Source: Lysobacter sp. cf310 (GTDB lineage Bacteria; Pseudomonadota; Gammaproteobacteria; Xanthomonadales; Xanthomonadaceae). Taken from it: 64,000 nt of DNA. This document shows, piece after piece, positions 14,437 to 31,139 of this stretch (position 1 is the stretch's first letter; every line of letters starts with the position of its first letter). The stretch lies in assembly GCF_900114355.1 (NCBI RefSeq), contig NZ_FOSS01000001.1, forward strand, positions 1,104,368 to 1,168,367. Reading direction: 5' to 3'. The notes beneath the pieces were generated by a model, which was not told the DNA's origin, did not search any database, and saw only the letters and a list, made by a program, of their open reading frames with translations. Both the position numbers and the translations under genes were made by a program.

Positions 14437-14985
14437 ATGAACCTCAAGAACAAACTCTCCACTGCCCTGCTGCTGGCACTGAGCGCCGCCGGCACCGCAT
14501 CGGCCGGCGTGCTCAATGTTCCTCTGCACATGCAGGAACACAGCAACTGGTGCTGGGCCGCCTCGGCGACGATGATCCTGCAGTATCACGGCCGGCCCTT
14601 GGCGCAATGCACCTTCGTCAACAAGGCCTTCAACATCAACTACGCCTGCGGCAACAGCACCTTCTACTGGAACAGCCCCGCCAATCAGGGCAACTGGAAC
14701 TACTACGTCGACGACCACATGAACTACTACTGGGGCGGGATGCGCTTCTATCAGCAGAACGGCTACCTGAGCCAGGCCGACCTGCAGTACCGCATCAATG
14801 CCAACAAGCCCTTCATCATGTCCTGGCGCTGGAGCAACGGCGGCGGCCACGACGTGGTGGTGAAGGGGTATTCGGGCAGCTACGTGTACTTCAACGATCC
14901 CTGGGACGGCAGCTACACCCGCACCTACGCCTCGACCGTATCGGCGCCCGATCGGCATTGGGAAGACGTGCTGGTGCAGTACTGA
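14437..14985 (+). CDS. secreted papain-like cysteine peptidase (C70/AvrRpt2-like)
   Basis: A 182-residue protein with a signal peptide (1-23, ending GTASAG). The mature region starts VLNVPLHMQEHSNWCWAASA, giving catalytic Cys39 in the NWCWAA motif of papain-like C39/C70 peptidases. His138 sits in NGGGHDVVVKGY, and NDPWDG follows as the third-residue motif. Family members cleave proteins outside the producing cell or inside hosts. There is almost no pro-region, so folding or inhibition may depend on the protein encoded just upstream. A strong hairpin follows the stop. Confidence 0.85.
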   Translation: MNLKNKLSTALLLALSAAGTASAGVLNVPLHMQEHSNWCWAASATMILQYHGRPLAQCTFVNKAFNINYACGNSTFYWNSPANQGNWNYYVDDHMNYYWGGMRFYQQNGYLSQADLQYRINANKPFIMSWRWSNGGGHDVVVKGYSGSYVYFNDPWDGSYTRTYASTVSAPDRHWEDVLVQY

Positions 14986-19567: not shown

Positions 19568-19614
19568 ACTGGTTCCTTCGACGATCCAGTTTTTATGAGC
19601 CCAGTGGAACCAGT
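19568..19614. promoter_or_regulatory. inverted repeat spanning the MocR start codon
   Basis: ACTGGTTCC at 19568-19576 and GGAACCAGT at 19606-19614 are perfect 9-bp reverse complements, 29 bases apart, with a partial third copy (CCAGT) near 19586. One arm is upstream and one inside the MocR coding region that starts at 19595. MocR proteins often bind separated repeats near their own promoter, so this is a likely autoregulatory site. Confidence 0.5.
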
Positions 19615-21043
19615 TTTCGAGTTCCAGATCGACCTCGACGGAGACGGCGGGCGCTTGCGCCAATTGCACGAGCAGTTGCGCGCGGCGATCGTAGACCAGC
19701 GCTTGCGTCCGGGCGTGGAGCTGCCCTCGACGCGCCGCGTGGCCAGCGCCTACGGCCTGGCGCGCAATACCGTGATCGCGGCCTACGACCTGCTGGTGGC
19801 GGAAGGCCATGTCCTCACCCGTGCCGGCGCCAGGGCGGTGGTCACCGACTATCGGGCCAAGTCGGCGCGGCCCGCGCGCGGCGGCGCGCGCCCGGCCGAC
19901 GAGCGCCTGAACCCGCAGTGGCGCACCCTGCCGGCGCGCGCGCGCAACGCCGACGAGACCTGGATGCCCGGCTTCCATCTGGGCACGCCCGAACACCGCC
20001 ATTTCCCGTTCGAGGTCTGGCGGCGCCTGCTCGGGCGCGTCTACCACCCGCGCCACATCGGCGCCTTCGACTATCACTCGCCCTACGGCCGGCCCAGGCT
20101 GCGCGCCGCGATCGCCCAGCACGTCTCGTTCGCGCGCGCGGTCGCCTGCGGCGCCGACGATGTGTTGGTGACCTCGGGCGCGCAGCAGGCGTTCGACCTG
20201 ATCGCGCGCGTGCTGGTCGTGCCGGGTAAGACCCAGGTCGCGGTCGAAGACCCGGGCTATCCGCCGCTGCGCGCCGCCCTGCTCGCCGCCGGCGCCCAAC
20301 TGGTGCCGATCGCGGTGGACGAGGAAGGCCTGTGCGTGGACCGCCTGCCCACCGATGTGCGGCTGATCTGCGTGACGCCCTCGCACCAGTTCCCGACCGG
20401 CGTGGCGATGTCGATGGCGCGCCGGATCGCGTTGCTGGCGTTCGCGCGCCGGCACGGCGCGACCATCGTCGAGGACGATTACGACGGCGAGTTCCGCTAC
20501 GGCCACCGCCCGCTCAACGCCTTGCAGACCCTCGACCGCGACGCCAGCGTGCTCTACGTCGGCACCTTCTCCAAGAGCCTGTTCCCCGCGCTGCGCATCG
20601 GCTACGTGGTCGCCCCGGCGTGGGCGCGCGAGCCGCTGGCCGCGGCCAAGCAATGCATCGATACCGCCGGCAATGCGCAGCTGCAGGACGCGCTGGCGCA
20701 GTTCATTCTCGACGGCCATCTGGCGCGGCACGTGCGGCGCATGCGCAAACTCTATGGCGAACGCCGACGCGCCATGCTCGAAGGCTTCGCCGGCGAGTTG
20801 CGGCCCTGGCTGGTCGCCATCCCTTCGGAAGCCGGCATCCATGTGTCCGCGCGTTTCCGCGATCCGGGCCAGGCGACGCGCTTGCTGACCAAGGCGCGCC
20901 AGCATGCCCCCGGCGCCTGCGCCATCGGGGAATTCGCGACGCGGCCCGATCCCGGACTGGGGCTGGTGTTCGGCATCGGCGGCATCGAAACGCAGGCGAT
21001 ACGCGACGCCTTGCGCACGTTTGCCTTGTCCCTGCGACGCTGA
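19595..21043 (+). CDS. MocR/PdxR family regulator (GntR wHTH fused to PLP aminotransferase fold)
   Basis: A 482-residue fusion. Residues 20-85 are a GntR-type winged helix: LHEQLRAAIVDQRLRPGVEL, then STRRVASAYGLARNTVIAAY. Residues 120-480 are a fold-type-I aminotransferase domain with VTSGAQQAFDLIARVL, EDPGYP, DDYDGEFRY, and the PLP lysine in YVGTFSKSLFPALRIGY. MocR proteins usually control PLP, GABA or polyamine metabolism genes close by. The divergent GNAT gene is the obvious candidate target; the effector is not deducible. Confidence 0.92.
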   Translation: MSPVEPVFEFQIDLDGDGGRLRQLHEQLRAAIVDQRLRPGVELPSTRRVASAYGLARNTVIAAYDLLVAEGHVLTRAGARAVVTDYRAKSARPARGGARPADERLNPQWRTLPARARNADETWMPGFHLGTPEHRHFPFEVWRRLLGRVYHPRHIGAFDYHSPYGRPRLRAAIAQHVSFARAVACGADDVLVTSGAQQAFDLIARVLVVPGKTQVAVEDPGYPPLRAALLAAGAQLVPIAVDEEGLCVDRLPTDVRLICVTPSHQFPTGVAMSMARRIALLAFARRHGATIVEDDYDGEFRYGHRPLNALQTLDRDASVLYVGTFSKSLFPALRIGYVVAPAWAREPLAAAKQCIDTAGNAQLQDALAQFILDGHLARHVRRMRKLYGERRRAMLEGFAGELRPWLVAIPSEAGIHVSARFRDPGQATRLLTKARQHAPGACAIGEFATRPDPGLGLVFGIGGIETQAIRDALRTFALSLRR

Positions 21044-21393: not shown

Positions 21394-24300
21394 ATGAACG
21401 ATGCGCGTGCAGTCTCGTTGCCGCTGTCCGTGGCCCAGTTGGGGCTGTGGTTCAGTCAGAAAATCGCCGGGCCTGGCGCCAATTTCAACCTGGCCGAGGC
21501 GATCGATATCCAGGGCTGGATCGATCCCGGATTGTTCTTGCGCGCCCTGCGCGAGGTCTCGTCCGAAGCCGAGGCGGTGCGCTTGCGCCTGATCGACGTC
21601 GACGGCGTTCCGCGTCAATGCATCGTCGGCGCGCGCATCGACGAATTCCCCTACTTCGACTATTCCGAGCACGCCGATCCGGCCGCGGCCGCCGAGCGCT
21701 GGATGACGGACGAGTTGCGCTCGCAGACCGAGGTGGACGACGGCCCGCTGTGGGTATGCGCCCTGTTCAAGCTCGCCCATGACCGCCACGTCTGGTATCA
21801 CCGCGCGCATCACATCGTGCTGGACGGCTATGCCGGCGGCCTGATCGCGCGCCGCGTGGCCGAGATCTACTCCGCCTATGCGCTCAATCGCGAGCCCGAC
21901 GCGAGCGGCTTCCGCACCCTGGCTTCGCTGCTGGAATCGGAGGAGAGCTACCGCGCCTCCGATCGCTGCCGGCGCGATCGCGAGTACTGGCACGAGCAAT
22001 TGGCCGACCTGCCCGAACCGGTGACCCTGTCGCGCCGCGGCGCGCGCGGCGACGGCGGTCTGCGCCGCAGCACCGGCTTTCTCGACAGCGCCCGCACCCG
22101 GCGCCTGCGCGCGCTGGGCAAGCAGCACGCGGCCAGCCTGCCGCAGGTGCTGATCGCCCTGATCGCGGCCTATTACTTCCGCGCCACCGGCGCGGCCGAT
22201 CTGGTGCTGGGCATGCCGGTCAGCGGCCGGGTCAATCATCAATTGCGACACACGCCCGGCATGCTCGCCAACGCGGTGCTGCTGCGCCTGCGCATGCGGC
22301 CGAAACAGAGCGTAGGCGAGCTGATCGCGCAGGTCGCGCGCGTGGTCGCGCAGGCCCTGCGCCACCAGCGCTACCGCTACGAGGATCTGCGCCGCGAACT
22401 GGGCCTGGTCGGCCAGGGCCAGCGCGTGGCCTGGCTGGGCGTGAACATCGAGCCCTTCGACTATGCGCTGGACTTCGGCGGCGCCACCGGCGTGCCGCGC
22501 AATCTGTCCAACGGCTCGGCCGAGGACCTGACCGTCTTCGTCTACGACCGCGGCGACGACGGCGGCCTGCGTTTCGATTTCGACGCCAATCCCTCGCTGT
22601 ACGGCGACGCCGAGTTGGACGACCATCGCCGCCGCCTGCAGCGCCTGATCGACGCCGCCCTGGACGATCCGGCCGTCGCCCTGTGCGCGATCGATGTGCT
22701 GGGCGATGAGGAACGCAAACGCCTGCTGCGGCAATGGAACGACACCGCCGCGCCTCTGCCCGCCGCGACCTTGCCGGCCCTGTTCGCCGAACAGGCCTGG
22801 CGCAGCCCGGAGGCGGTGGCCGTGTGCCACGGCGAGCGGCGCCTGAGCTATCGCGAGCTGCATGTGCGCAGCCTGCACGCGGCCAACCGCCTGATCGAAC
22901 GCGGCGTCGCGCCCGGCCAGATCGTGGCGATGGCGCTGCCGCGCGACGAGAACCTGCTGGTGGCCATGCTGGCGATCGGATTCGCGGGCGCGGCCTATCT
23001 GCCGCTGGATCCGGAAGCGCCGGAAGAACGCCTGGCCAGCATGCTGGACGATGCGCGGCCGGCGCTGCTGCTGACCTCGGCGGAACTGGCGCCGCGGCTG
23101 GCGCGATTGGCGACGCCGCTGGCGACGCTGGCGCCGGCCGAGCTCGCGCCCGCGCTGGCGACGCCGCGCGCGTTCGACCTGTCCGCGCTGCAGTCGCGCG
23201 CCTATGTGCTCTACACCTCCGGCTCCACCGGCCGGCCCAAGGGCGTGGAGGTCAGTCACGCCAATCTGAGCAATCTGCTGGAAGCGATGCGCCGCCAGCT
23301 CGCGCCGCTGCCCGCCGACCGTTTCCTCGCGGTCAGCACGGTGATCTTCGATGTCGCCGCGCTGGAGCTGTTCCTGCCGCTGCTGGTGGGCGCGCGCACC
23401 GTGATCGCCGGCGCCGACATCGTGCGCGATCCCGCGCGCCTGGCCGGCCTGATCCGCGAGCACGGCATCGGCTACATGCAGGCCACGCCCTCGCTGTGGC
23501 GCATGCTGCTGTCCAGCGGCGACACCGACCTGAGCGGCGTGCATGCGCTGGCCGCCGGCGAAGCGCTGCCGGCCGAACTGGCGCAGCGATTGGCGACGCT
23601 GGCCGACCGGGTCAGCAATCTCTACGGACCGACCGAAACCAGCGTCTACTCCACCGCGATCGAATTGTCGGCCGCGGACCTGGCCGCGCCGCCGATCGGC
23701 CGCCCCATACTCAACACCCGTCTCTACGTGCTCGACGACAGCGGCGGCCTGGCGCCCAGCGGTTGCCCAGGCGAGCTCTACATCGGCGGTGCCGGCGTCG
23801 CCCTGGGCTACCTCAATCGGCCCGAGCTGACCGCGCAGCGTTTCCTGCCCGACCCCTTCGGTCCCGCGGGAGGCCGCATGTACCGCAGCGGCGACCGCGT
23901 GCGCTGGCGCGAGGACGGCGTGCTGGAGTACCTGGGTCGCAGCGATCAGCAGGTCAAGATCCGCGGCATCCGGGTCGAGCCGGGCGAGATCGAAAGCCAG
24001 CTCATGCGGCATCCGACGGTCGCCGAGGCCGCGGTGATCGCCGAGCCCGCCGGCAGCGAAGGCGGCCTGCGCCTGTGCGCCTACCTGGTGCCCGCAGCGG
24101 GCCAGCGCATCGACACCGACGCGCTGCGCCGTCATCTGGCCCAGCAACTGCCCGATTACATGATCCCCGGCGCACTGGTGAGCCTGCCGGCGCTGCCGCT
24201 GACGCCCAGCGGCAAGCTCGACCGCAAGGCCCTGCCCGCGCCGGAGCGCGGCGAACGCGGCGGCTTCGTGGCGCCGCGCACGCCGGTGGAGCGCAAGCTC

Positions 24301-25410
24301 GCGGCGATCTGGACGGAACTGCTGGGCTTGCCGCGGGTCGGCGTGCACGACAACTTCTTCGAACTCGGCGGCGACTCGCTGATCGCCGCGCAACTGATCG
24401 CGCGCCTGCCCGAGCGCTTCGGCAAACGCCTGCCGGTCGCGAGCCTGTTCGAGGCCTCGACCATCGCCGGCCTGGCCGCGCTGCTGGAACGCACCGACCA
24501 CGAGCACGGCGACCCGCTGGGTGCGGTGCTGTCGCTGCGGCGGGCCGCGGCGCCCGCCACCGCGCCGCGCCCCCTGTTCTGCATCCATCCCATCGCCGGC
24601 CTCAGCCTGGGCTATTCCGGCCTGCTGCGGCACCTGGATCCGGCGATGCCGGTGTACGGCCTGCAGGCGCGCGGCCTGCGCGGCATGGACCGTCTGCCGG
24701 CCAGCATCGACGAGATCGCGGCCGACTATCTGGCCCAGATCCGTCGCCTCCAACCCGAGGGGCCGTATCGGCTGCTCGGCCGTTCGCTGGGCGGCCTGAT
24801 CGGCCACGCCATCGCCGCGCAGATGAGCGAACAGGGCGAGCGCGTGGAACTGCTGGCGATGATCGACAGTTATCTGTTCACGCCCAGCCTGCCCGCGCAG
24901 AGGCGCGAACCGGCCGACGAAGTGCGCGCGGCCCTGGACTTCCTCGGCATCGCACCCGGCCCCGGGCCCGCGCCGCGCAGCCTGGACGAACTCGCCCCGG
25001 CCCTGCTCGCCTACAACACGCGCTCGATGCCGTTGCTGCGCGAGATCGCGCGCGATCATCCGCGCTTCGTCGAACACGCCTTCGCGGTGATGCGCAACAA
25101 CCTCAGCCTGGCGCGCCGGCATGCGCCGCGCCGCCTGGATCTGGACCTGGTGTACTTCCACGCCACCCAGCGCCTGGGCGATCCCTCCGCGCTGATCGAA
25201 CACGATCCCGAGACTTGGCGCGCCTACGTCGGCGGCCGCTTCGAGCTGCACGCGCTGGATTGCCATCACGAGAGCGTGCTCGACACCCTGCCCGCCGCGC
25301 GCATCGGCCAGGTCCTGAGCCGGCACCTGGAGCGCCTGCAACCGCGCGCGCCGACGTCCGCGCACGCACCCGACGACGATTTCGAACCGCGCACGGTGGC
25401 GCATGCCTGA
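21394..25410 (+). CDS. single-module nonribosomal peptide synthetase (C-A-T-TE)
   Basis: A 1338-residue NRPS starting at ATG 21394 after AAGGAG. Condensation domain: about 1-430, with HHIVLDG at 139-145. Adenylation domain: about 455-960, with YTSGSTGRPKG at 607-617, FDVAALE, NLYGPTETS and GKLDRKALP. Thiolation domain: carrier Ser995 in ELGGDSLIAA. Thioesterase: about 1080-1310, with Ser1131 in GRSLGG and His1291/1292 in DCHHESVL. The layout and N-terminus resemble EntF. The specificity pocket read by eye is D-V-L-Q-L-A-L-V-Y, closest to the glycine code D-I-L-Q-L-G-L-I-W, so glycine or another small residue is likely. It probably acylates one amino acid and releases it. It overlaps the next gene by 8 bases. 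Confidence 0.93.
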   Translation: MNDARAVSLPLSVAQLGLWFSQKIAGPGANFNLAEAIDIQGWIDPGLFLRALREVSSEAEAVRLRLIDVDGVPRQCIVGARIDEFPYFDYSEHADPAAAAERWMTDELRSQTEVDDGPLWVCALFKLAHDRHVWYHRAHHIVLDGYAGGLIARRVAEIYSAYALNREPDASGFRTLASLLESEESYRASDRCRRDREYWHEQLADLPEPVTLSRRGARGDGGLRRSTGFLDSARTRRLRALGKQHAASLPQVLIALIAAYYFRATGAADLVLGMPVSGRVNHQLRHTPGMLANAVLLRLRMRPKQSVGELIAQVARVVAQALRHQRYRYEDLRRELGLVGQGQRVAWLGVNIEPFDYALDFGGATGVPRNLSNGSAEDLTVFVYDRGDDGGLRFDFDANPSLYGDAELDDHRRRLQRLIDAALDDPAVALCAIDVLGDEERKRLLRQWNDTAAPLPAATLPALFAEQAWRSPEAVAVCHGERRLSYRELHVRSLHAANRLIERGVAPGQIVAMALPRDENLLVAMLAIGFAGAAYLPLDPEAPEERLASMLDDARPALLLTSAELAPRLARLATPLATLAPAELAPALATPRAFDLSALQSRAYVLYTSGSTGRPKGVEVSHANLSNLLEAMRRQLAPLPADRFLAVSTVIFDVAALELFLPLLVGARTVIAGADIVRDPARLAGLIREHGIGYMQATPSLWRMLLSSGDTDLSGVHALAAGEALPAELAQRLATLADRVSNLYGPTETSVYSTAIELSAADLAAPPIGRPILNTRLYVLDDSGGLAPSGCPGELYIGGAGVALGYLNRPELTAQRFLPDPFGPAGGRMYRSGDRVRWREDGVLEYLGRSDQQVKIRGIRVEPGEIESQLMRHPTVAEAAVIAEPAGSEGGLRLCAYLVPAAGQRIDTDALRRHLAQQLPDYMIPGALVSLPALPLTPSGKLDRKALPAPERGERGGFVAPRTPVERKLAAIWTELLGLPRVGVHDNFFELGGDSLIAAQLIARLPERFGKRLPVASLFEASTIAGLAALLERTDHEHGDPLGAVLSLRRAAAPATAPRPLFCIHPIAGLSLGYSGLLRHLDPAMPVYGLQARGLRGMDRLPASIDEIAADYLAQIRRLQPEGPYRLLGRSLGGLIGHAIAAQMSEQGERVELLAMIDSYLFTPSLPAQRREPADEVRAALDFLGIAPGPGPAPRSLDELAPALLAYNTRSMPLLREIARDHPRFVEHAFAVMRNNLSLARRHAPRRLDLDLVYFHATQRLGDPSALIEHDPETWRAYVGGRFELHALDCHHESVLDTLPAARIGQVLSRHLERLQPRAPTSAHAPDDDFEPRTVAHA

Positions 25411-26746
25411 GCCGACCATGAGCGACGTCCGCCCGATCGCGATCTTCACCATCGGCACCCTCGGCGACGTGCTGCCCTGCGTCGCCCTGGGCCAGGGCCT
25501 GCAGCGCGCCGGCTATCCGGTGCGCATCGTCACCAGCGCCAACTTCGAAGCGCTGGTGCGCGAGGCCGGCCTGGACCATTACCCGCTGACCGCCGACTTC
25601 CAGGCCATGCTGGCCGCCGATCGCGCCATCGCCGATCGCGGCCTCAACCTGTACGCGATGGCGCGCACCTTCCGCGAACGCTATGCGCACTGGGCCCGGC
25701 ACTGGACTGCCGAAGGCCTGGCCGCCAGCGAGGGCGCCGGTCTGCTGATCGGGGTCAGCAACGCGATCCAGCTGGCCAAGGCGATGTCGGAAGCGCGCGG
25801 CCTGCCGTTCGCGATCGCGCGCCTGCAGCCGCTCACGCCCTCGCGCATCCTGCCGCCGATGGTGATGGCCGGCGGCCGCGAGCGTCTGCCCGGCTGGCTC
25901 AGCCTGAGCCTGTACCGGCTGATCCATCTGCTGGTCTGGTATGTGATGAAGCCGGCGATCAACGACATCGTGCGACCGCAGCTGGGGCTGCCGCGTTTTT
26001 CCTGGCATGGCCCGCATCTGGGCCGCAACGCCCAGCGCGAGAAGACCCTCAACGGCTACAGCCCCAGCCTGCTGCCGCGCCCAGCGGACTGGCCCGACAG
26101 TTCCCAGGTCACCGGCTACTGGTTCGCGCAGGACACCCGCTGGCAGCCCGACCCGGCGCTGCAGGCCTTTCTGGAGGCCGGCGACAAACCGATCTACGTC
26201 GGCTTCGGCAGCATGGTCAACGCCGACGCGGCCGCGTTCACCCGCACCGTGCTGGATGCGGTCGAGCGCAGCGGGCTGCGCGCCGTGCTCGCGACCGGCT
26301 GGGGCGGCCTGGACGGCGCCGACGGCGTGCGCGACGGGCGCTGCTATTTCCTGCGCCAGGCCCCGCACGACGCCTTGTTCCCGCACATGTGCGCCGCCGT
26401 GCACCACGGCGGCGCCGGCACCACCGCGGCGGCGGTGCGCGCGGGCATTCCCTCGGTGGTGGTGCCGTTCTACGGCGATCAACCGTTCTGGGCGCGCTGC
26501 CTGCACGCGCGCGGCGTCGCCCCGCCGGCGGTGCAGCGCAAAGGCCTGGACGCGGCGCGACTGGCGGCCGCCATCGCCGCCACTCAGGCGCCGGCGATGC
26601 GGCAGGCCGCCGCGCGACTGGGCGACACCGTGCGCGCCGAAGACGGGATCGGCAACGCCGTCGCCCAATTGCGCGCCTGGGGCCTGGTCGAAGCGATCGC
26701 CGACCCCGTCCCGCGCCCGCGCCGTCACCTGCGGAGCGTGGCATGA
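25403..26746 (+). CDS. GT1 family glycosyltransferase, RhlB-like
   Basis: A 447-residue protein of the MGT/UGT GT1 type. The acceptor domain begins IAIFTIGTLGDVLPCVALGQ, matching the GSAGDVFPF start region of RhlB, the first rhamnosyltransferase of rhamnolipid synthesis. The donor domain holds IYVGFGSM and HHGGAGTTAAAVRAGIPSVV, then PFYGDQPFWA. It would transfer a sugar, possibly rhamnose, to a hydroxyl of the lipid or lipoaminoacid made by the NRPS. The start overlaps the NRPS stop (alternative ATG 25418), and its own stop overlaps the next start by 4 bases, so translation is coupled. Confidence 0.85.
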   Translation: MPEPTMSDVRPIAIFTIGTLGDVLPCVALGQGLQRAGYPVRIVTSANFEALVREAGLDHYPLTADFQAMLAADRAIADRGLNLYAMARTFRERYAHWARHWTAEGLAASEGAGLLIGVSNAIQLAKAMSEARGLPFAIARLQPLTPSRILPPMVMAGGRERLPGWLSLSLYRLIHLLVWYVMKPAINDIVRPQLGLPRFSWHGPHLGRNAQREKTLNGYSPSLLPRPADWPDSSQVTGYWFAQDTRWQPDPALQAFLEAGDKPIYVGFGSMVNADAAAFTRTVLDAVERSGLRAVLATGWGGLDGADGVRDGRCYFLRQAPHDALFPHMCAAVHHGGAGTTAAAVRAGIPSVVVPFYGDQPFWARCLHARGVAPPAVQRKGLDAARLAAAIAATQAPAMRQAAARLGDTVRAEDGIGNAVAQLRAWGLVEAIADPVPRPRRHLRSVA

Positions 26747-28095
26747 GCGCTCCGCCGGGCCGTCCGCTGAGCCTGTTCGAACGCGCCCTGTACGGCGACG
26801 GCAGTTTGCCGGGCAATGTCGTGGTCACCGCCTGCATCGAAGGCCGGATCGATCCGGCCGCGCTGCTGCGCGCGCTGAGTCAGGCGCAGGCCCGCCATCC
26901 GCTGCTGCGCTGCCTGATCGTCGAACGCGAGGGCCGTCCCTGGTTCGAGTTGCGACGCACGCCGCCGCAGATCCCGCTGCGCATCATCGATCGCCGCAGC
27001 GACGAGGACTGGCTGACCTGGTCCGAGCGTGAGCTGCAGCGGTGTTTCGACGGCCGGCGCGAGCCCTTGGCGCGCCTGCTCTGGCTGCGCGGCGAGCACC
27101 GCAGCGAACTGGTGCTGATCTGCCATCACGCGATCTGCGACGGCCGCGCGCTCACCCACCTGCTGGGCGAACTGCTGCGCGATTGCGACGGGCCTGAGCG
27201 CGCGATCGAGACCCGCGACGCGCTGCCCAGCTTCGCTGACTGGCTGCCCGCCGCGGTACGCGCCGATCGCGGTCTGCAGCGCAGTATCCGCTGGCGCGCG
27301 GCCGCCCTGGCCCTGGCCTTGCGCCTGCTGGTGCGCGACCGCCCGGCGCAGCACTACGGCGCGATCTACCGCGAGTTGTGGACGCTGGACGAAGCCGTCA
27401 GCCGGCGCCTGTCCGAGCAGTGCCGCGCGCAACACGTCAGCGCCTACGTCGCCATCAGCCTGGCCTTCGTGTTGGCCTTCCGCGCGGTCTGCGGCGCGCA
27501 GCGCATCCAGCGCTTCGTCGCGCCGGTGGACATGCGCAGCCTGCTGCCGAACCTAGGCGACCGCGACCTGTTCGGCATCGCGCCCACGGTCGAGTTGCGC
27601 CCCGGCAAGACCGGCGCGGGCACCGCCGCGCCGGACGAGTTCTGGACCCGGGCGCGCGCGCTACAAGCCGAATTGCAGCGCAGGATCGAAGTCCTGCCGG
27701 CCAAGGTCTATCGCAACTTCCTCGGCCTGGAACGCCTGCACGGCGTGTTCGATCGCATGGTCGTATACGGCCGTTCGCGCCGCGAGGGCCGTCAGCTCAC
27801 CCTCAGCAATCTCGGCCGCCTGTCGCTGACTCAGGACTATCGCGGTTTCCACCTGCGCGCGGTGCGCGGCATCTCCGGCGTGGTCGGCGCGACCCCCGCG
27901 CATCAGCTGGTGATCTCGCGTTACGCGGGCCGCTACGACTTCTCCCTGTCCTCCGACGAGGAGTCGCTGCCGCGCGCGCACGCGCTGCGGATCCGCGAGC
28001 ACGCGATGGACTTGCTGATGGCGCTGACCGCGCCGCAAGCGCAGCCCCACGCCGAACCCGCTCCCGTCTCCGCCGAACCGGTGCGCGCCGCATGA
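26743..28095 (+). CDS. stand-alone condensation-domain-fold acyltransferase (PapA-like)
   Basis: A 450-residue protein of the CoA-dependent acyltransferase/condensation superfamily. It has PLSLFERALYGDGSLPGNVV at the start, the catalytic motif HHAICDG at residues 128-134, and a C-terminal LTLSNLGRLSL segment equivalent to the latch region. Stand-alone members such as PapA5 or WS/DGAT-like enzymes esterify hydroxyls with acyl groups from CoA or carrier proteins. In this operon it probably acylates the sugar or the aminoacyl lipid. It is coupled by ATGA overlaps at both ends. A second, divergent copy is two genes downstream. Confidence 0.8.
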   Translation: MSAPPGRPLSLFERALYGDGSLPGNVVVTACIEGRIDPAALLRALSQAQARHPLLRCLIVEREGRPWFELRRTPPQIPLRIIDRRSDEDWLTWSERELQRCFDGRREPLARLLWLRGEHRSELVLICHHAICDGRALTHLLGELLRDCDGPERAIETRDALPSFADWLPAAVRADRGLQRSIRWRAAALALALRLLVRDRPAQHYGAIYRELWTLDEAVSRRLSEQCRAQHVSAYVAISLAFVLAFRAVCGAQRIQRFVAPVDMRSLLPNLGDRDLFGIAPTVELRPGKTGAGTAAPDEFWTRARALQAELQRRIEVLPAKVYRNFLGLERLHGVFDRMVVYGRSRREGRQLTLSNLGRLSLTQDYRGFHLRAVRGISGVVGATPAHQLVISRYAGRYDFSLSSDEESLPRAHALRIREHAMDLLMALTAPQAQPHAEPAPVSAEPVRAA

Positions 28096-29078
28096 ACCGC
28101 TATGGCCTGATCTTCGTGCTCTACCAGCCCGACGCCGAGTTCGTCGACAACCTGCGCCGCGCGCGCGAAATCTGCGCGGACCTGGTGGCGGTGGACAATA
28201 CGCCCGAACCCGACGCCGCCCTGCACGCGGCCCTGCATCGCGAGCGCATCGACGTGCTGGTCAACCGCAACCGCGGCGGCCTGGCCGGGGCCTACAACCG
28301 CGGCGCCGAAGTGCTGCTGGCGCGCGGCTGCGAGGTGATCTTCCTGCTCGACCAGGACTCCAAGATCGAGGCTTCGTTCTTCACCGCGATGATGCAGGCC
28401 TGCGCCGCGGTCGGCGGCGACAGCTTCGTGCTCGGGCCGCGCGTGTACGAGATCAACCTGCGCAAGTGCATGCCGACGTTTCCGCCGGGTCGGCGCTTTC
28501 CCCGGCCGGTGCGCATGACCGAACGCGAGCACGGCCTGTTCCCGACCTTGTTCGTGATTTCCTCGGGCTCGGCGATCTCGGCCGCCGCCTATCGCAAGCT
28601 CGGCGCCTTCCGCGAGGACTACTTCATCGAGTACATCGACATCGAGTACGGCCTGCGCGCGTCCAGCCAGGGCGTGCCGGTGTACGTGAACGCCGACGTG
28701 ACCATGCAGCAGACCACCGGCCACATCCGCCGCCACGGCAAGCTCTATACCACCCACCACGTCGCCTGGCGCCGCTACTACGGCGCGCGCAATGCGGTGC
28801 ACTGCCTGCGCCTGTACAAGGCGCATTGGGGCCTGCATTGGCTCAGCGGCGCGCTGGCCCTGCACCAAGCACTGTGCGTGGCCCTGTTCGAACCCGACAA
28901 GCTGCGCAAGCTCACCGCCATCGCCTGCGGCTACCTGGACGGCCGGCGCGGACGCCTGGGCACCTTCGAACGCCTGCATCCGCGCATTCACGCCTATTGC
29001 ACCCGCGCCAGTCGCGAGGCGCAGGCGGCCGAGCGCGCCAAGCCCGCGCCGGCACCCGCGCCCGGAGACGCCGGGTGA
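28092..29078 (+). CDS. GT2 family rhamnosyltransferase, RhlC-like
   Basis: A 328-residue GT2 protein starting MNRYGLIFVLYQPDAEFVDN. It shows VAVDNTPEP, FLLDQDSKIEASF with the DxD-like donor motif, LGPRVYE, FVISSGSAIS and EDYFIEYIDIEYGLRASSQG. The C-terminus has WRRYYGARNAVHCLRLY and FEPDKLRKLTAI. These blocks line up in order with RhlC, the second rhamnosyltransferase of rhamnolipid synthesis, and with other dTDP-rhamnose-using enzymes. It probably adds a second sugar to the product. Overlaps of 4 bases on both sides place it inside the operon. Confidence 0.88.
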   Translation: MNRYGLIFVLYQPDAEFVDNLRRAREICADLVAVDNTPEPDAALHAALHRERIDVLVNRNRGGLAGAYNRGAEVLLARGCEVIFLLDQDSKIEASFFTAMMQACAAVGGDSFVLGPRVYEINLRKCMPTFPPGRRFPRPVRMTEREHGLFPTLFVISSGSAISAAAYRKLGAFREDYFIEYIDIEYGLRASSQGVPVYVNADVTMQQTTGHIRRHGKLYTTHHVAWRRYYGARNAVHCLRLYKAHWGLHWLSGALALHQALCVALFEPDKLRKLTAIACGYLDGRRGRLGTFERLHPRIHAYCTRASREAQAAERAKPAPAPAPGDAG

Positions 29079-30376
29079 GCCGCCCGCTGTCCACGATCGA
29101 GCAGCTGATCGACGGTTGCATCGTCTACGCGCTGCGGCTGGACGGCGAAATCGCCGAGGCCGATCTGCGCAGGGCGATCGCGCGCGTGCAGGCCAAGCAT
29201 CCGGCCCTGCGTGCAACCTTGCGCACGCAAGGCATGGCCGTGCGCTACGTGGACGATGGCGCCGGCCCCATCCCCCTGCGCGTGCTGGGCTTGCGCGGCG
29301 ACGGCGATAGCCGCCGCGAAATCGACCAGGAGCTGGAAACGCCCTTCGCCGAGGGCCAGGCCCAGTTACGCCTGGTCTGGCTGCGCGGCGCGGGCCGCAG
29401 CGAGCTGCTGTTCGCGGCCTCGCACCGCATCTGCGACGGCATGAGCCTGCTGATCGTGGCCAGGGAAACCCTGCGCGCCCTGTACGACGACGTGCCGTTG
29501 CCGCCCTACGCGCCGCTCACCGCCGCCGATATCGTCGGCCACTACGTCCCCGCGCATCCGCGACGCCGGCGCTGGGTCGCCGGCCTGATCGGCCTGGCGC
29601 TGCGCCTGCTGCCGCCGATGGCGCCGCCGCGCAATCGCGAGCACCACCTGGAATGGAGCGCCGGCGCGGTGCTGTCCAGCGCGCTGCGTCAGCGCTGCAA
29701 ACGCGAGGACGTGTCGGTGCACGCCGCCCTGCTGGTCGCGCTGGACGCGGCCCTGCTCACCGCACTGGGCCGCGAACAGGTACCGGCCTGGATCGAAAGC
29801 CCGATGGACGGCCGGCGCGGACGCGTGCCGGCGCTGGCCGACGACCGCCTGTTCTACGGCGGCGGCGGCCTGAAGTTCCGCACCGGCCAGGACGACGGCA
29901 GCGGCTTCTGGGATCGCGTGCGCGAAGCGCATCGTTCGATACAGGCGCAGATCGAGCGCGAAACCCGCGAGATTCCCAGCCGCTACCACTTCTGCGAACT
30001 GATCCGGCCACCGGCGCCGGCGCGCTTGAACGCGCTGATCCGGCTCGGCAATGCGCTCGGCCTGAAGGGCAGCTGGAACCGCATCACTTTGTCGAATCTG
30101 GGCCAGCTCGATCTGGTCGACGAGCGGGCGCCGTTCCGCCTGGACGATTTCCGCCTGTACGTGCACTCGCATTCGGTGCGCGCGCTGGGCCTGATCGTGT
30201 ACGCCCTGCACGGCCAGCTGCGCTTCTATTGCATGGGCGACGAGCATTGCATCGATCCCGAGCGCGCCCACGCCCTGCGCGAGGCCCTGATGGCGGTGCT
30301 GGAAGCCCAGGTCGCGCGCACCCAGCCCGCTGCGGCATCGCCGTCCCGCGTGGACGGCGCGGCCTGGGCCGGTTGA
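29075..30376 (+). CDS. second stand-alone condensation-fold acyltransferase with altered active-site motif
   Basis: A 433-residue protein read from GTG 29075, which overlaps the previous stop (GTGA); GGAGA is eight bases upstream. The fold resembles the product of 26743-28095: TIEQLIDGCIVYALRLDGEI at the start and WNRITLSNLGQLDLVDERAP near the end. The catalytic motif at 116-122 is SHRICDG, so the first His of HHxxxDG is Ser while the second His and the Asp remain. In condensation domains the second His is the catalytic one, so activity is possible. It is the last gene of the overlapping run. Confidence 0.75.
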   Translation: MSRPLSTIEQLIDGCIVYALRLDGEIAEADLRRAIARVQAKHPALRATLRTQGMAVRYVDDGAGPIPLRVLGLRGDGDSRREIDQELETPFAEGQAQLRLVWLRGAGRSELLFAASHRICDGMSLLIVARETLRALYDDVPLPPYAPLTAADIVGHYVPAHPRRRRWVAGLIGLALRLLPPMAPPRNREHHLEWSAGAVLSSALRQRCKREDVSVHAALLVALDAALLTALGREQVPAWIESPMDGRRGRVPALADDRLFYGGGGLKFRTGQDDGSGFWDRVREAHRSIQAQIERETREIPSRYHFCELIRPPAPARLNALIRLGNALGLKGSWNRITLSNLGQLDLVDERAPFRLDDFRLYVHSHSVRALGLIVYALHGQLRFYCMGDEHCIDPERAHALREALMAVLEAQVARTQPAAASPSRVDGAAWAG

Positions 30377-30455: not shown

Positions 30456-31139
30456 ATGGCGCTCGTGCTTTACCAGCATCCCCTGGCTTCGTTCTGCCAC
30501 AAGGTGCTGATCGCCCTGTACGAAAACGGCACCGCCTTCGAACCGCGCCTGATCGAACGCGCGGCCGCCGACGAGCACACCCGTTTCCTCGATCTGTGGC
30601 CGGTCGGCAAGATGCCGGTGCTGCGCGACGAAGCGCGCGATGCGACGGTGCCCGAGACCAGTATCATCATCGAGTACCTGGACCGTCATTACCCGGGTCC
30701 GCAGCCGTTGCTGCCCGCCGATCCGACCGCCAACCTCGACGCGCGCCTGTGGGACCGGTTTTTCGACCTGTACGTAAGCGTGCCGATGCAGAAGATCGTG
30801 CTGGACCGCCTGCGCGGCGAGGACGAGCGCGATCCGCGCGGCGTGGCCGATGCCCATGCCGGCCTGGGCATCGCCTACGGCATGATCGAGCGGCGCATGG
30901 CCGACCGGGTCTGGGCCGCCGGCGACGAATTCGGCCTGGCCGACTGCGCGGCAGCGCCGGCCCTGTTCTACGCCGGCATCGTGACCCCGTTCGGCGACGG
31001 CTACCCGCAACTGAGCGCCTACTTCGAACGTCTGCTGCAGCGGCCGTCCTACGCGCGCGTGCTGAACGAGGCGCGGCCTTACTTCAAGCTGTTCCCCTAT
31101 TACGAGCGCATGCCGGCGCGGTTCCTGGCCGAGAGCTAG
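30456..31139 (+). CDS. glutathione S-transferase
   Basis: A 227-residue GST. The thioredoxin-fold N-terminus reads LVLYQHPLASFCHKVLIALY, with Ser/Cys in the position that activates glutathione, then VGKMPVLRDE and ETSIIIEYLDRHYPG as the glutathione-binding cis-Pro and ES/T motifs. The helical C-domain includes DEFGLADCAAAPALFYAGIV. The substrate is unknown. It follows the biosynthetic operon after 80 bases in the same direction and may be read through from it, but has its own AGGAAA ribosome site. Confidence 0.9.
   Translation: MALVLYQHPLASFCHKVLIALYENGTAFEPRLIERAAADEHTRFLDLWPVGKMPVLRDEARDATVPETSIIIEYLDRHYPGPQPLLPADPTANLDARLWDRFFDLYVSVPMQKIVLDRLRGEDERDPRGVADAHAGLGIAYGMIERRMADRVWAAGDEFGLADCAAAPALFYAGIVTPFGDGYPQLSAYFERLLQRPSYARVLNEARPYFKLFPYYERMPARFLAES

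What the first reader, a model, noticed from the sequence alone, without database searches (positions are those of the whole stretch)
21394..30376. NRPS cluster carrying both RhlB-like and RhlC-like glycosyltransferases: possible rhamnolipid-type glycolipid with an N-acyl amino acid core
Seen directly: five genes overlap by 4-8 bases, in the order C-A-T-TE NRPS, GT1, condensation-fold acyltransferase, GT2, condensation-fold acyltransferase. The GT1 N-terminus resembles RhlB, and the GT2 aligns block by block with RhlC (LDQDS, LGPR, ISSG, DIEYGLRA, RRYY.ARN, DKLRKL). Established: RhlB and RhlC add two rhamnoses to the RhlA product in rhamnolipid synthesis. Inference: here the NRPS makes an acylated amino acid in place of the RhlA product, the two transferases add sugars, and the two extra acyltransferases esterify them. 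I do not know a described product with this gene set.
Basis: partly seen in the sequence, partly recalled or inferred. Interest (0 to 1): 0.82.

Follow-up and report, generated by a model that had tools for sequence, protein, structure and literature searches.

The report
Gene cluster for a glycine-based glycolipid
A Lysobacter bacterium carries five overlapping genes that look like an assembly line for a sugar-coated lipid built on a small amino acid, probably glycine; it appears to be a more elaborate relative of a lipid known from an oil-eating sea bacterium.

Summary
Five same-strand genes at 21394-30376 overlap by 8, 4, 4 and 4 bases: a one-module NRPS (C-A-T-TE), a glycosyltransferase (GT1), a stand-alone condensation-fold protein (AT1), an RhlC-like glycosyltransferase (GT2) and a second condensation-fold protein (AT2). 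GT2 is a relative of RhlC. GT1 is not RhlB: in a tree it lies apart from RhlB, and it is nearer to sterol-glucosyltransferase-like enzymes. The NRPS-GT1 core is already described: Royer et al. 2013 reported one-module NRPS genes overlapping a GT gene in Xanthomonas and in Alcanivorax borkumensis, which makes a glycine-glucolipid. Related NRPSs mostly carry glycine-type pockets; the window's own (DVLQLALVYK) has drifted, so glycine is likely, not certain. New is the AT1-GT2-AT2 half. NRPS, GT1, AT1 and GT2 occur in 20 of 20 Lysobacter genomes examined, in three arrangements, and the cluster recurs in Dyella, Luteimonas, Rhodanobacter relatives and Acidobacteriota, sometimes with a penicillin-amidase, patatin or ABC-exporter gene. 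Best reading: a doubly glycosylated N-(3-hydroxyacyl)-amino-acid glycolipid, probably further acylated and of the envelope. No product was measured. Verdict: new variant of a known kind.

The parts
21394..25410 (+). One-module NRPS, C-A-T-TE, 1338 aa (alternative start 21373); A-domain code DVLQLALVYK
   Evidence: Pfam; solved relatives of the C domain; code and catalytic residues; tree
25403..26746 (+). GT1, 447 aa, GT28/UDPGT-type glycosyltransferase with PFYGDQPFWA stretch; not RhlB
26743..28095 (+). AT1, 450 aa, stand-alone condensation-fold protein, probable acyltransferase, HHAICDG motif intact
   Evidence: predicted fold and fold search
28092..29078 (+). GT2, 328 aa, RhlC-like family 2 glycosyltransferase (TIGR01556 157 bits, below its cut-off of 200.55)
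29075..30376 (+). AT2, 433 aa, stand-alone condensation-fold protein, probable acyltransferase, SHRICDG motif (HxxxDG kept)
   Evidence: no fold predicted

Best explanation
The five genes build an N-acyl-amino-acid glycolipid. (1) The condensation domain takes a fatty acyl thioester, most likely 3-hydroxyacyl, and joins it to a small amino acid, most likely glycine (alanine possible), on the NRPS carrier domain. (2) The thioesterase releases the lipo-amino acid. (3) GT1 puts a first hexose, more likely glucose than rhamnose, on the 3-hydroxyl of the acyl chain. (4) GT2 adds a second sugar, probably rhamnose. (5) AT1 and AT2 probably esterify acyl groups onto the sugars, or build up an ester-linked chain. 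The product is probably an envelope glycolipid of the whole genus. Shown: gene content, overlaps, domains, intact catalytic motifs, family placement, conservation and linkage. Inferred: every substrate, the order of steps, the reaction of AT1 and AT2, and where the product sits.
For: Domain order and intact catalytic motifs. The C domain's best solved relatives are 7c1k, CDA C1, ObiF1 and EntF, which start chains on acyl or aryl groups (recalled). A codes of relatives are glycine-type: DILQLGLIWK in 5 of 5 NRPSs of sister genus g17 and DILQLGF(V/I)WK in 10 of 13 rows of Dyella, Luteimonas, Rhodanobacter, L. chinensis and Acidobacteriota. Royer et al. give a Gly signature to X. albilineans XALc_0364 (an unknown one to XALc_1145) and report the same gene pair in A. 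borkumensis, whose glycine-glucolipid is known. GT2 joins RhlC. AT1 and AT2 keep the His and Asp of HxxxD in all 18 rows each; AT1 folds confidently (mean pLDDT 87.7) as a condensation-superfamily protein. Linkage: NRPS, GT1, AT1 and GT2 in 20 of 20 Lysobacter genomes in three arrangements; in the family 17 of 17 GT2 genomes also have GT1, while 15 have strong GT1 alone. rmlD and two phosphopantetheinyl-transferase hits are in the genome.
Against: No chemistry is available. The window's A code differs from the glycine code at 4 of 10 positions. TIGR01556 and Pfam Glycos_transf_2 do not reach their cut-offs for GT2. Neither sugar can be read from sequence. The nearest solved relative of AT1 and AT2, 8s6l, carries a dimycocerosyl-transferase name in the sequence table but its entry is titled 'AzeD dehydratase of Pseudomonas aeruginosa'; true PapA5 (1q9j) scores only 35 bits with the AT1 profile, below many NRPS C domains, and is not listed for AT2. 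Three Rhodanobacter-type loci have GT2 with no AT found beside it (L005, L154, L156). The described A. borkumensis operon has no AT, yet its lipid has four ester-linked acids.
Confidence: 0.64

Rival explanations
1. AT1 and AT2 do not acylate the sugars but link 3-hydroxyacyl units head to tail, giving the oligo-ester chain seen in the A. borkumensis glycine-glucolipid.
For: The A. borkumensis lipid carries four ester-linked 3-hydroxy acids; AT-like genes number 0 to 4 per cluster, which would fit variable chain length.
Against: The described A. borkumensis operon holds only PPTase, GT and NRPS yet the chain is made; AT1 lies directly before GT2 in 20 of 20 Lysobacter genomes, which ties it to the second sugar.
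Confidence: 0.3
2. AT1 or AT2 is not an acyltransferase but another condensation-superfamily enzyme, for example a dehydratase like AzeD or a scaffold.
For: Foldseek's first match to the AT1 model is 8s6l, titled AzeD dehydratase (TM 0.72, 23% identity), and the same chain is the best profile match of both proteins.
Against: HxxxD is kept in all 18 rows each; 23% identity does not carry a reaction; PapA5 (TM 0.61) and SgcC5 (TM 0.59) are also among the first eight matches.
Confidence: 0.15
3. A di-rhamnolipid-type pathway with GT1 and GT2 acting as RhlB and RhlC, the NRPS replacing RhlA.
For: GT2 is 38% identical to RhlC; rmlD is in the genome.
Against: GT1 is not in the RhlB branch and has a different donor-site stretch; the A. 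borkumensis product with a comparable gene pair carries glucose.
Confidence: 0.15
4. The two halves act on different things: NRPS-GT1 makes a glycine glycolipid, while AT1-GT2(-AT2) decorates another lipid or a polysaccharide.
For: In 12 of 20 Lysobacter genomes NRPS-GT1 and AT1-GT2 lie at separate places.
Against: GT1 bridges the halves: it is beside the NRPS in 12 genomes, beside AT1-GT2-AT2 in 3, and between both in 5; in 247 family genomes GT2 was not found without GT1 at the limits used; the halves are joined in Dyella and Acidobacteriota.
Confidence: 0.12
5. A siderophore- or serratamolide-like lactone of the EntF/SwrW type.
For: Same C-A-T-TE order as EntF; NF007605 scores 720 bits.
Against: That score is far below the EntF cut-off of 2400 and the A code is not the serine code (serine code recalled).
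Confidence: 0.04

Closest known systems
'Short NRPS' plus overlapping glycosyltransferase loci of Xanthomonas albilineans (XALc_0364/0365, XALc_1145/1144) and A. borkumensis (ABO_1784/1783), Royer et al. 2013, PMC3849588 (passages read)
   Same: One C-A-T-TE module; 3' end overlaps a GT gene by 4 or 8 bases there, 8 here; Gly signature in XALc_0364
   Different: No AT1, GT2 or AT2 described; in A. borkumensis a PPTase gene is attached; direct sequence comparison could not be made
Glycine-glucolipid of Alcanivorax borkumensis
   Same: Predicted core: sugar on a 3-hydroxyacyl chain with an amide-linked glycine
   Different: One sugar only; chain of four 3-hydroxy acids; here a second sugar and probably further acylation are predicted
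Rhamnolipid genes rhlA-rhlB-rhlC (B. glumae, P. aeruginosa)
   Same: GT2 is in the RhlC lineage
   Different: No RhlA match in the window; GT1 is not RhlB; an NRPS and two condensation-fold proteins are added
Stand-alone condensation-fold enzymes (AzeD, PapA5, SgcC5)
   Same: Fold and HxxxD motif of AT1; motif of AT2
   Different: Low identity (23%, 17%, 15% for AT1); PapA5 model NF006787 scores 33.5 and 21.9 bits against a cut-off of 396; AzeD is titled a dehydratase

Membership tests
Short NRPS-GT pair (Xanthomonas/Alcanivorax kind) | Single C-A-PCP-TE module | tested here: met
Short NRPS-GT pair (Xanthomonas/Alcanivorax kind) | 3' end overlaps a glycosyltransferase gene by a few bases | tested here: met
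   8 bases, 25403-25410
Short NRPS-GT pair (Xanthomonas/Alcanivorax kind) | Starter-type C domain | tested here: inconclusive
   best solved relatives are chain-starting C domains (their type is recalled); no C-domain tree was made
Short NRPS-GT pair (Xanthomonas/Alcanivorax kind) | Glycine signature in the A domain | tested here: inconclusive
   window DVLQLALVYK; g17 relatives DILQLGLIWK; positions set by motif, glycine code recalled
Short NRPS-GT pair (Xanthomonas/Alcanivorax kind) | Sequence kinship with ABO_1784 and XALc_0364 | not testable with these tools
   no named record of either could be fetched; NRPS-GT1 pairs of unnamed genus g17, perhaps Xanthomonas, are 48-50% and 51-53% identical
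Rhamnolipid pathway | RhlB orthologue | tested here: not met
Rhamnolipid pathway | RhlC orthologue | tested here: inconclusive
   in the RhlC lineage (100/98) but below the TIGR01556 cut-off
Rhamnolipid pathway | RhlA nearby | tested here: not met
   B. glumae RhlA has no significant tblastn match in the window (best E 2.2), but 4.9e-147 in a B. cenocepacia control; the rest of the genome was not searched
PapA-type acyltransferase | HxxxD motif and condensation fold | tested here: met
   (fold for AT1 only)
PapA-type acyltransferase | Closest relative a proven PapA | tested here: not met
   nearest solved chain is AzeD, titled a dehydratase
EntF/serratamolide-type synthetase | Serine A code | tested here: not met
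   serine code recalled

The most novel reading that the evidence does not exclude
A modular family of NRPS-made amino-acid glycolipids forms an unrecognised envelope lipid of Lysobacter and of soil Lysobacterales and Acidobacteriota. Each lineage plugs different modules into one NRPS-GT1 core: an RhlC-derived second sugar, zero to four condensation-fold acylation genes, an exporter in some Acidobacteriota, and in some a penicillin-amidase that cuts off the amino acid to release a free surfactant, the unidentified step proposed for A. borkumensis.
Probability: 0.4. Interest if true: 0.72.

Novelty: new variant of a known kind. Interest (0 to 1): 0.55.

Why it matters
The function of the Xanthomonas short NRPS genes was left open, a 2019 review calls the enzymes of the A. 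borkumensis glycine-glucolipid unknown, and a 2023 paper says that its pathway has not been elucidated. A genus-wide, genetically simple cluster in Lysobacter makes such a pathway testable, and the spread of gene modules offers candidate enzymes for a second sugar, for acylation and for amide release of a biosurfactant. It would also join RhlC-type glycosylation to NRPS-made lipids.

Tried and rejected
Rejected: RhlB identity of GT1; EntF/serratamolide reading; RhlA in the window. I also dropped horizontal transfer into the window's own clade: the GT1 tree groups that clade with Dyella and Acidobacteriota (100/99), but in the NRPS tree the 13 genus rows stand on one side of a branch, with weak support (22). 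The MocR-type regulator (19595-21043) is not matched beside the clusters of L001, L002 or L041, and the GST gene (30456-31139) is matched only in L001, L002, L040 and L041 of 35 loci; I left both out of the system. Led nowhere: class-wide search with the NRPS (only the own genome of 369 at a strict limit) and with GT1 (the own genome and two others at 30-35% identity, whose neighbours I did not examine); paper searches for the five-gene set, the code or the release step; promoter and terminator scan (no promoter-like site; 1 terminator-like site against 3.2 in shuffles). The A. borkumensis genes could not be fetched.
Full report
WHAT IS THERE. Five genes on the + strand, 21394-30376, overlap by 8, 4, 4 and 4 bases. 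The first is a one-module NRPS with condensation, adenylation, carrier and thioesterase domains. Its catalytic motifs are intact: HHIVLDG, GGDSL, GRSLGG, and the Asp and His of the thioesterase. Second is GT1, a GT28/UDPGT-type transferase. Third and fifth are AT1 and AT2, stand-alone condensation-fold proteins. Fourth is GT2, which matches the rhamnosyltransferase model TIGR01556 with 157 bits (cut-off 200.55). The window lies in a 4.73-Mb genome of the genus Lysobacter (the name rests on named relatives).

GT2 IS AN RhlC RELATIVE. From public records I took a P. aeruginosa 'rhamnosyltransferase' (its MFS-GT-fosA setting is that of chromosomal rhlC, recalled) and a B. glumae operon of hydrolase, sugar-nucleotide transferase, MFS transporter and GT2 (rhlA-rhlB-rhlC by recall). 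GT2 is 38% identical to both RhlC proteins, score 478 and 426, against 182-223 for three other family 2 enzymes. In a 41-row tree 34 cluster GT2s, three RhlC rows and one B. cenocepacia paralogue stand together on a 100/98 branch, away from three outgroup rows; the tool warns of long branches there.

GT1 IS NOT RhlB. It is 33% identical to B. glumae RhlB, score 266, but scores 569-601 against transferases of Rhizobium, Nostoc and Deinococcus. Its best solved relative is a sterol 3-beta-glucosyltransferase, 153 bits; some rhamnosyltransferases match too, at 22-24 bits. In a 51-row tree RhlB lies across a 100/100 branch. The donor-site stretch reads PFYGDQPFWA in GT1 and PSAHDQFDNA in B. glumae RhlB. 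This favours UDP-glucose but does not prove it. PMC10710537 calls ABO_1783 RhlB-like; I could not compare it.

AT1 AND AT2. The His and Asp of HxxxD are invariant in all 18 rows of each alignment; the Gly after them is invariant in AT1 and nearly so in AT2. AT1 and AT2 are 32% identical. Profiles of both match chain 8s6l best, 135 bits against 65 for the next chain (AT1) and 80 against 42 (AT2). That chain is named a phthiocerol/phthiodiolone dimycocerosyl transferase there, but the entry's title is 'AzeD dehydratase of Pseudomonas aeruginosa'. The AT1 model (mean pLDDT 87.7, pTM 0.87) also matches 8s6l first (TM 0.72, 23% identity), then NRPS condensation domains, SgcC5 (0.59) and PapA5 of M. 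tuberculosis (0.61). So the fold is sure and the HxxxD motif is kept; that the reaction is acyl transfer to a hydroxyl is the likeliest reading, not shown.

THE AMINO ACID. The ten pocket residues, placed by core motifs, read DVLQLALVYK in the window and in 4 of 4 close relatives (L001, L002, L040, L041). They read DILQLGLIWK in 5 of 5 NRPSs of sister genus g17, DILQLGFVWK or DILQLGFIWK in 10 of 13 rows of Dyella, Luteimonas, Rhodanobacter, L. chinensis and Acidobacteriota (the other three: DIVQVGIIWK once, DILQMGFIWK twice), and DILQLGLVWK or DIFQLTLVWK in other Lysobacter. DILQLGLIWK is the textbook glycine code (recalled; one search found no paper in the library holding that string). The window's code is thus a drifted glycine code, and alanine cannot be excluded. 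The condensation domain's best solved relatives start chains on acyl or aryl groups (that they are starters is recalled).

WHAT IS KNOWN. Passages of PMC3849588 (Royer et al. 2013) describe 'short NRPS genes' with one C-A-PCP-TE module, overlapping a glycosyltransferase gene by 4 or 8 bp, in X. albilineans (one with a Gly signature, one with an unknown one), similar genes in X. campestris and X. axonopodis, and in A. borkumensis SK2 (ABO_1784, 1783, with PPTase ABO_1782). They predict 'glycine linked to a beta-hydroxy-carboxylic acid and a glycosyl residue'. Passages of PMC10684412 give the A. borkumensis lipid as glucosyl-tetra(3-hydroxyacyl)-glycine, with some congeners apparently carrying alanine. 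Passages of PMC6669457 say that the glycine form was found with the envelope, that only the glycine-free form was found in supernatants, which suggests amide cleavage, and that all enzymes are unknown. A passage of PMC10710537 names ABO_1783 and ABO_2215 as potential contributors and says that the pathway has not been elucidated. A passage of PMC4408752 says that no precise function could be given to the X. albilineans pair. I read passages only, not whole papers. The NRPS-GT1 half of the window is therefore a known kind. I saw no description of the five-gene set in the listings.

CONSERVATION AND LINKAGE. In the genus, 20 of 20 genomes hold GT2. There are three arrangements: all five genes together (5 genomes: G000, G011, G012, G013, G015); NRPS apart from GT1-AT1-GT2-AT2 (3: G008 about 133 kb away, G019 about 208 kb, G010 on another contig); NRPS-GT1 at one place and AT1-GT2 at another (12). 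AT2 orthologues are found in the first 8; the 12 give only matches at AT1's place or weaker. In 247 family genomes GT2 (E<=1e-40) is in 17, and all 17 have GT1 (E<=1e-100). GT1 at E<=1e-60 is in 41: 32 at E<=1e-100, of which 15 lack GT2, and 9 weaker. Shared ancestry makes these counts non-independent. In 397 genomes of the order GT2 (E<=1e-60) is in 18, of which 11 belong to another family, f12. All 11 f12 loci hold NRPS, GT1 and GT2 together, with AT1 in 6, AT2 in 8 and a penicillin-amidase gene in 4 (L158, L161, L162 and L163 repeat genomes already seen as L005, L008, L007 and L010).

ACROSS PHYLA. Of 8 Acidobacteriota loci (a pattern scan, not a census), 6 are long enough to show the NRPS, and all 6 have NRPS, GT1, AT1, GT2 and AT2; three of the 6 are not titled MAG. 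In the NRPS tree they stand beside Dyella (100), in the GT1 tree beside Dyella plus the window clade (100/99), in the GT2 tree beside Rhodanobacter (97/97). This fits transfer between phyla; its direction rests on rooting.

MECHANISM. See best explanation. The genome has rmlD (335 bits, above cut-off) and two phosphopantetheinyl-transferase hits, so dTDP-rhamnose and carrier activation are probably available. No RhlA match lies in the window, so the acyl chain would come from general 3-hydroxyacyl metabolism (inference). Conservation in 20 of 20 genomes speaks for an envelope lipid more than for a sporadic antibiotic; that too is inference.

AGAINST. No product is known; the code has drifted; sugars and acyl acceptors are not readable from sequence; the nearest solved relative of AT1 and AT2 is titled a dehydratase; some GT2 loci show no AT (L005, L154, L156). 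Verdict: real, well conserved, a new variant of a known kind.

Noticed in passing
L003:7054-9327, L005:7749-10016, also L154, L156, L157, L158 (L158 repeats L005): A penicillin-amidase family gene sits inside the cluster directly after GT1. It is a candidate for the unknown amide-cleaving step that would release the glycine-free lipid. The window's genome has only one distant match (30%).
   Followed up: partly
L065-L072, L140, L141: In Lysobacter with split clusters a patatin-like gene follows NRPS-GT1 (8 of 8 loci examined) or the NRPS (2 of 2 examined).
   Followed up: partly
L012:15392-, L018:12412-13946, L019:12470-14004: Three of the six long Acidobacteriota clusters end in an ABC-2 exporter pair, suggesting export of the product.
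   Followed up: partly
L017:16177-, L018:14088-15353, L019:14119-: A third glycosyltransferase that matches RhlB (44%, 32%, 33%) better than GT1 follows three Acidobacteriota clusters.
   Followed up: partly
L012, L013, L017: These Acidobacteriota clusters carry three tandem AT2-like genes besides AT1.
   Followed up: no
G002:C4:65352-69339 (L072): The NRPS orthologue is matched in two pieces, so it may carry a frameshift or an assembly error.
   Followed up: no
L122:7995-8870: A B. cenocepacia RhlC paralogue is the nearest plasmid-collection relative of GT2 (40%); no RhlA, RhlB or other cluster gene matched in its 16.9-kb stretch.
   Followed up: partly
window 14437-14985 (+): A small papain-like peptidase (Pfam Peptidase_C39_2 and C70).
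   Followed up: no
window 19595-21043 (+): A MocR-type (GntR plus aminotransferase) regulator upstream of the cluster in the same direction; matched in L040 but not in L001, L002 or L041.
   Followed up: partly
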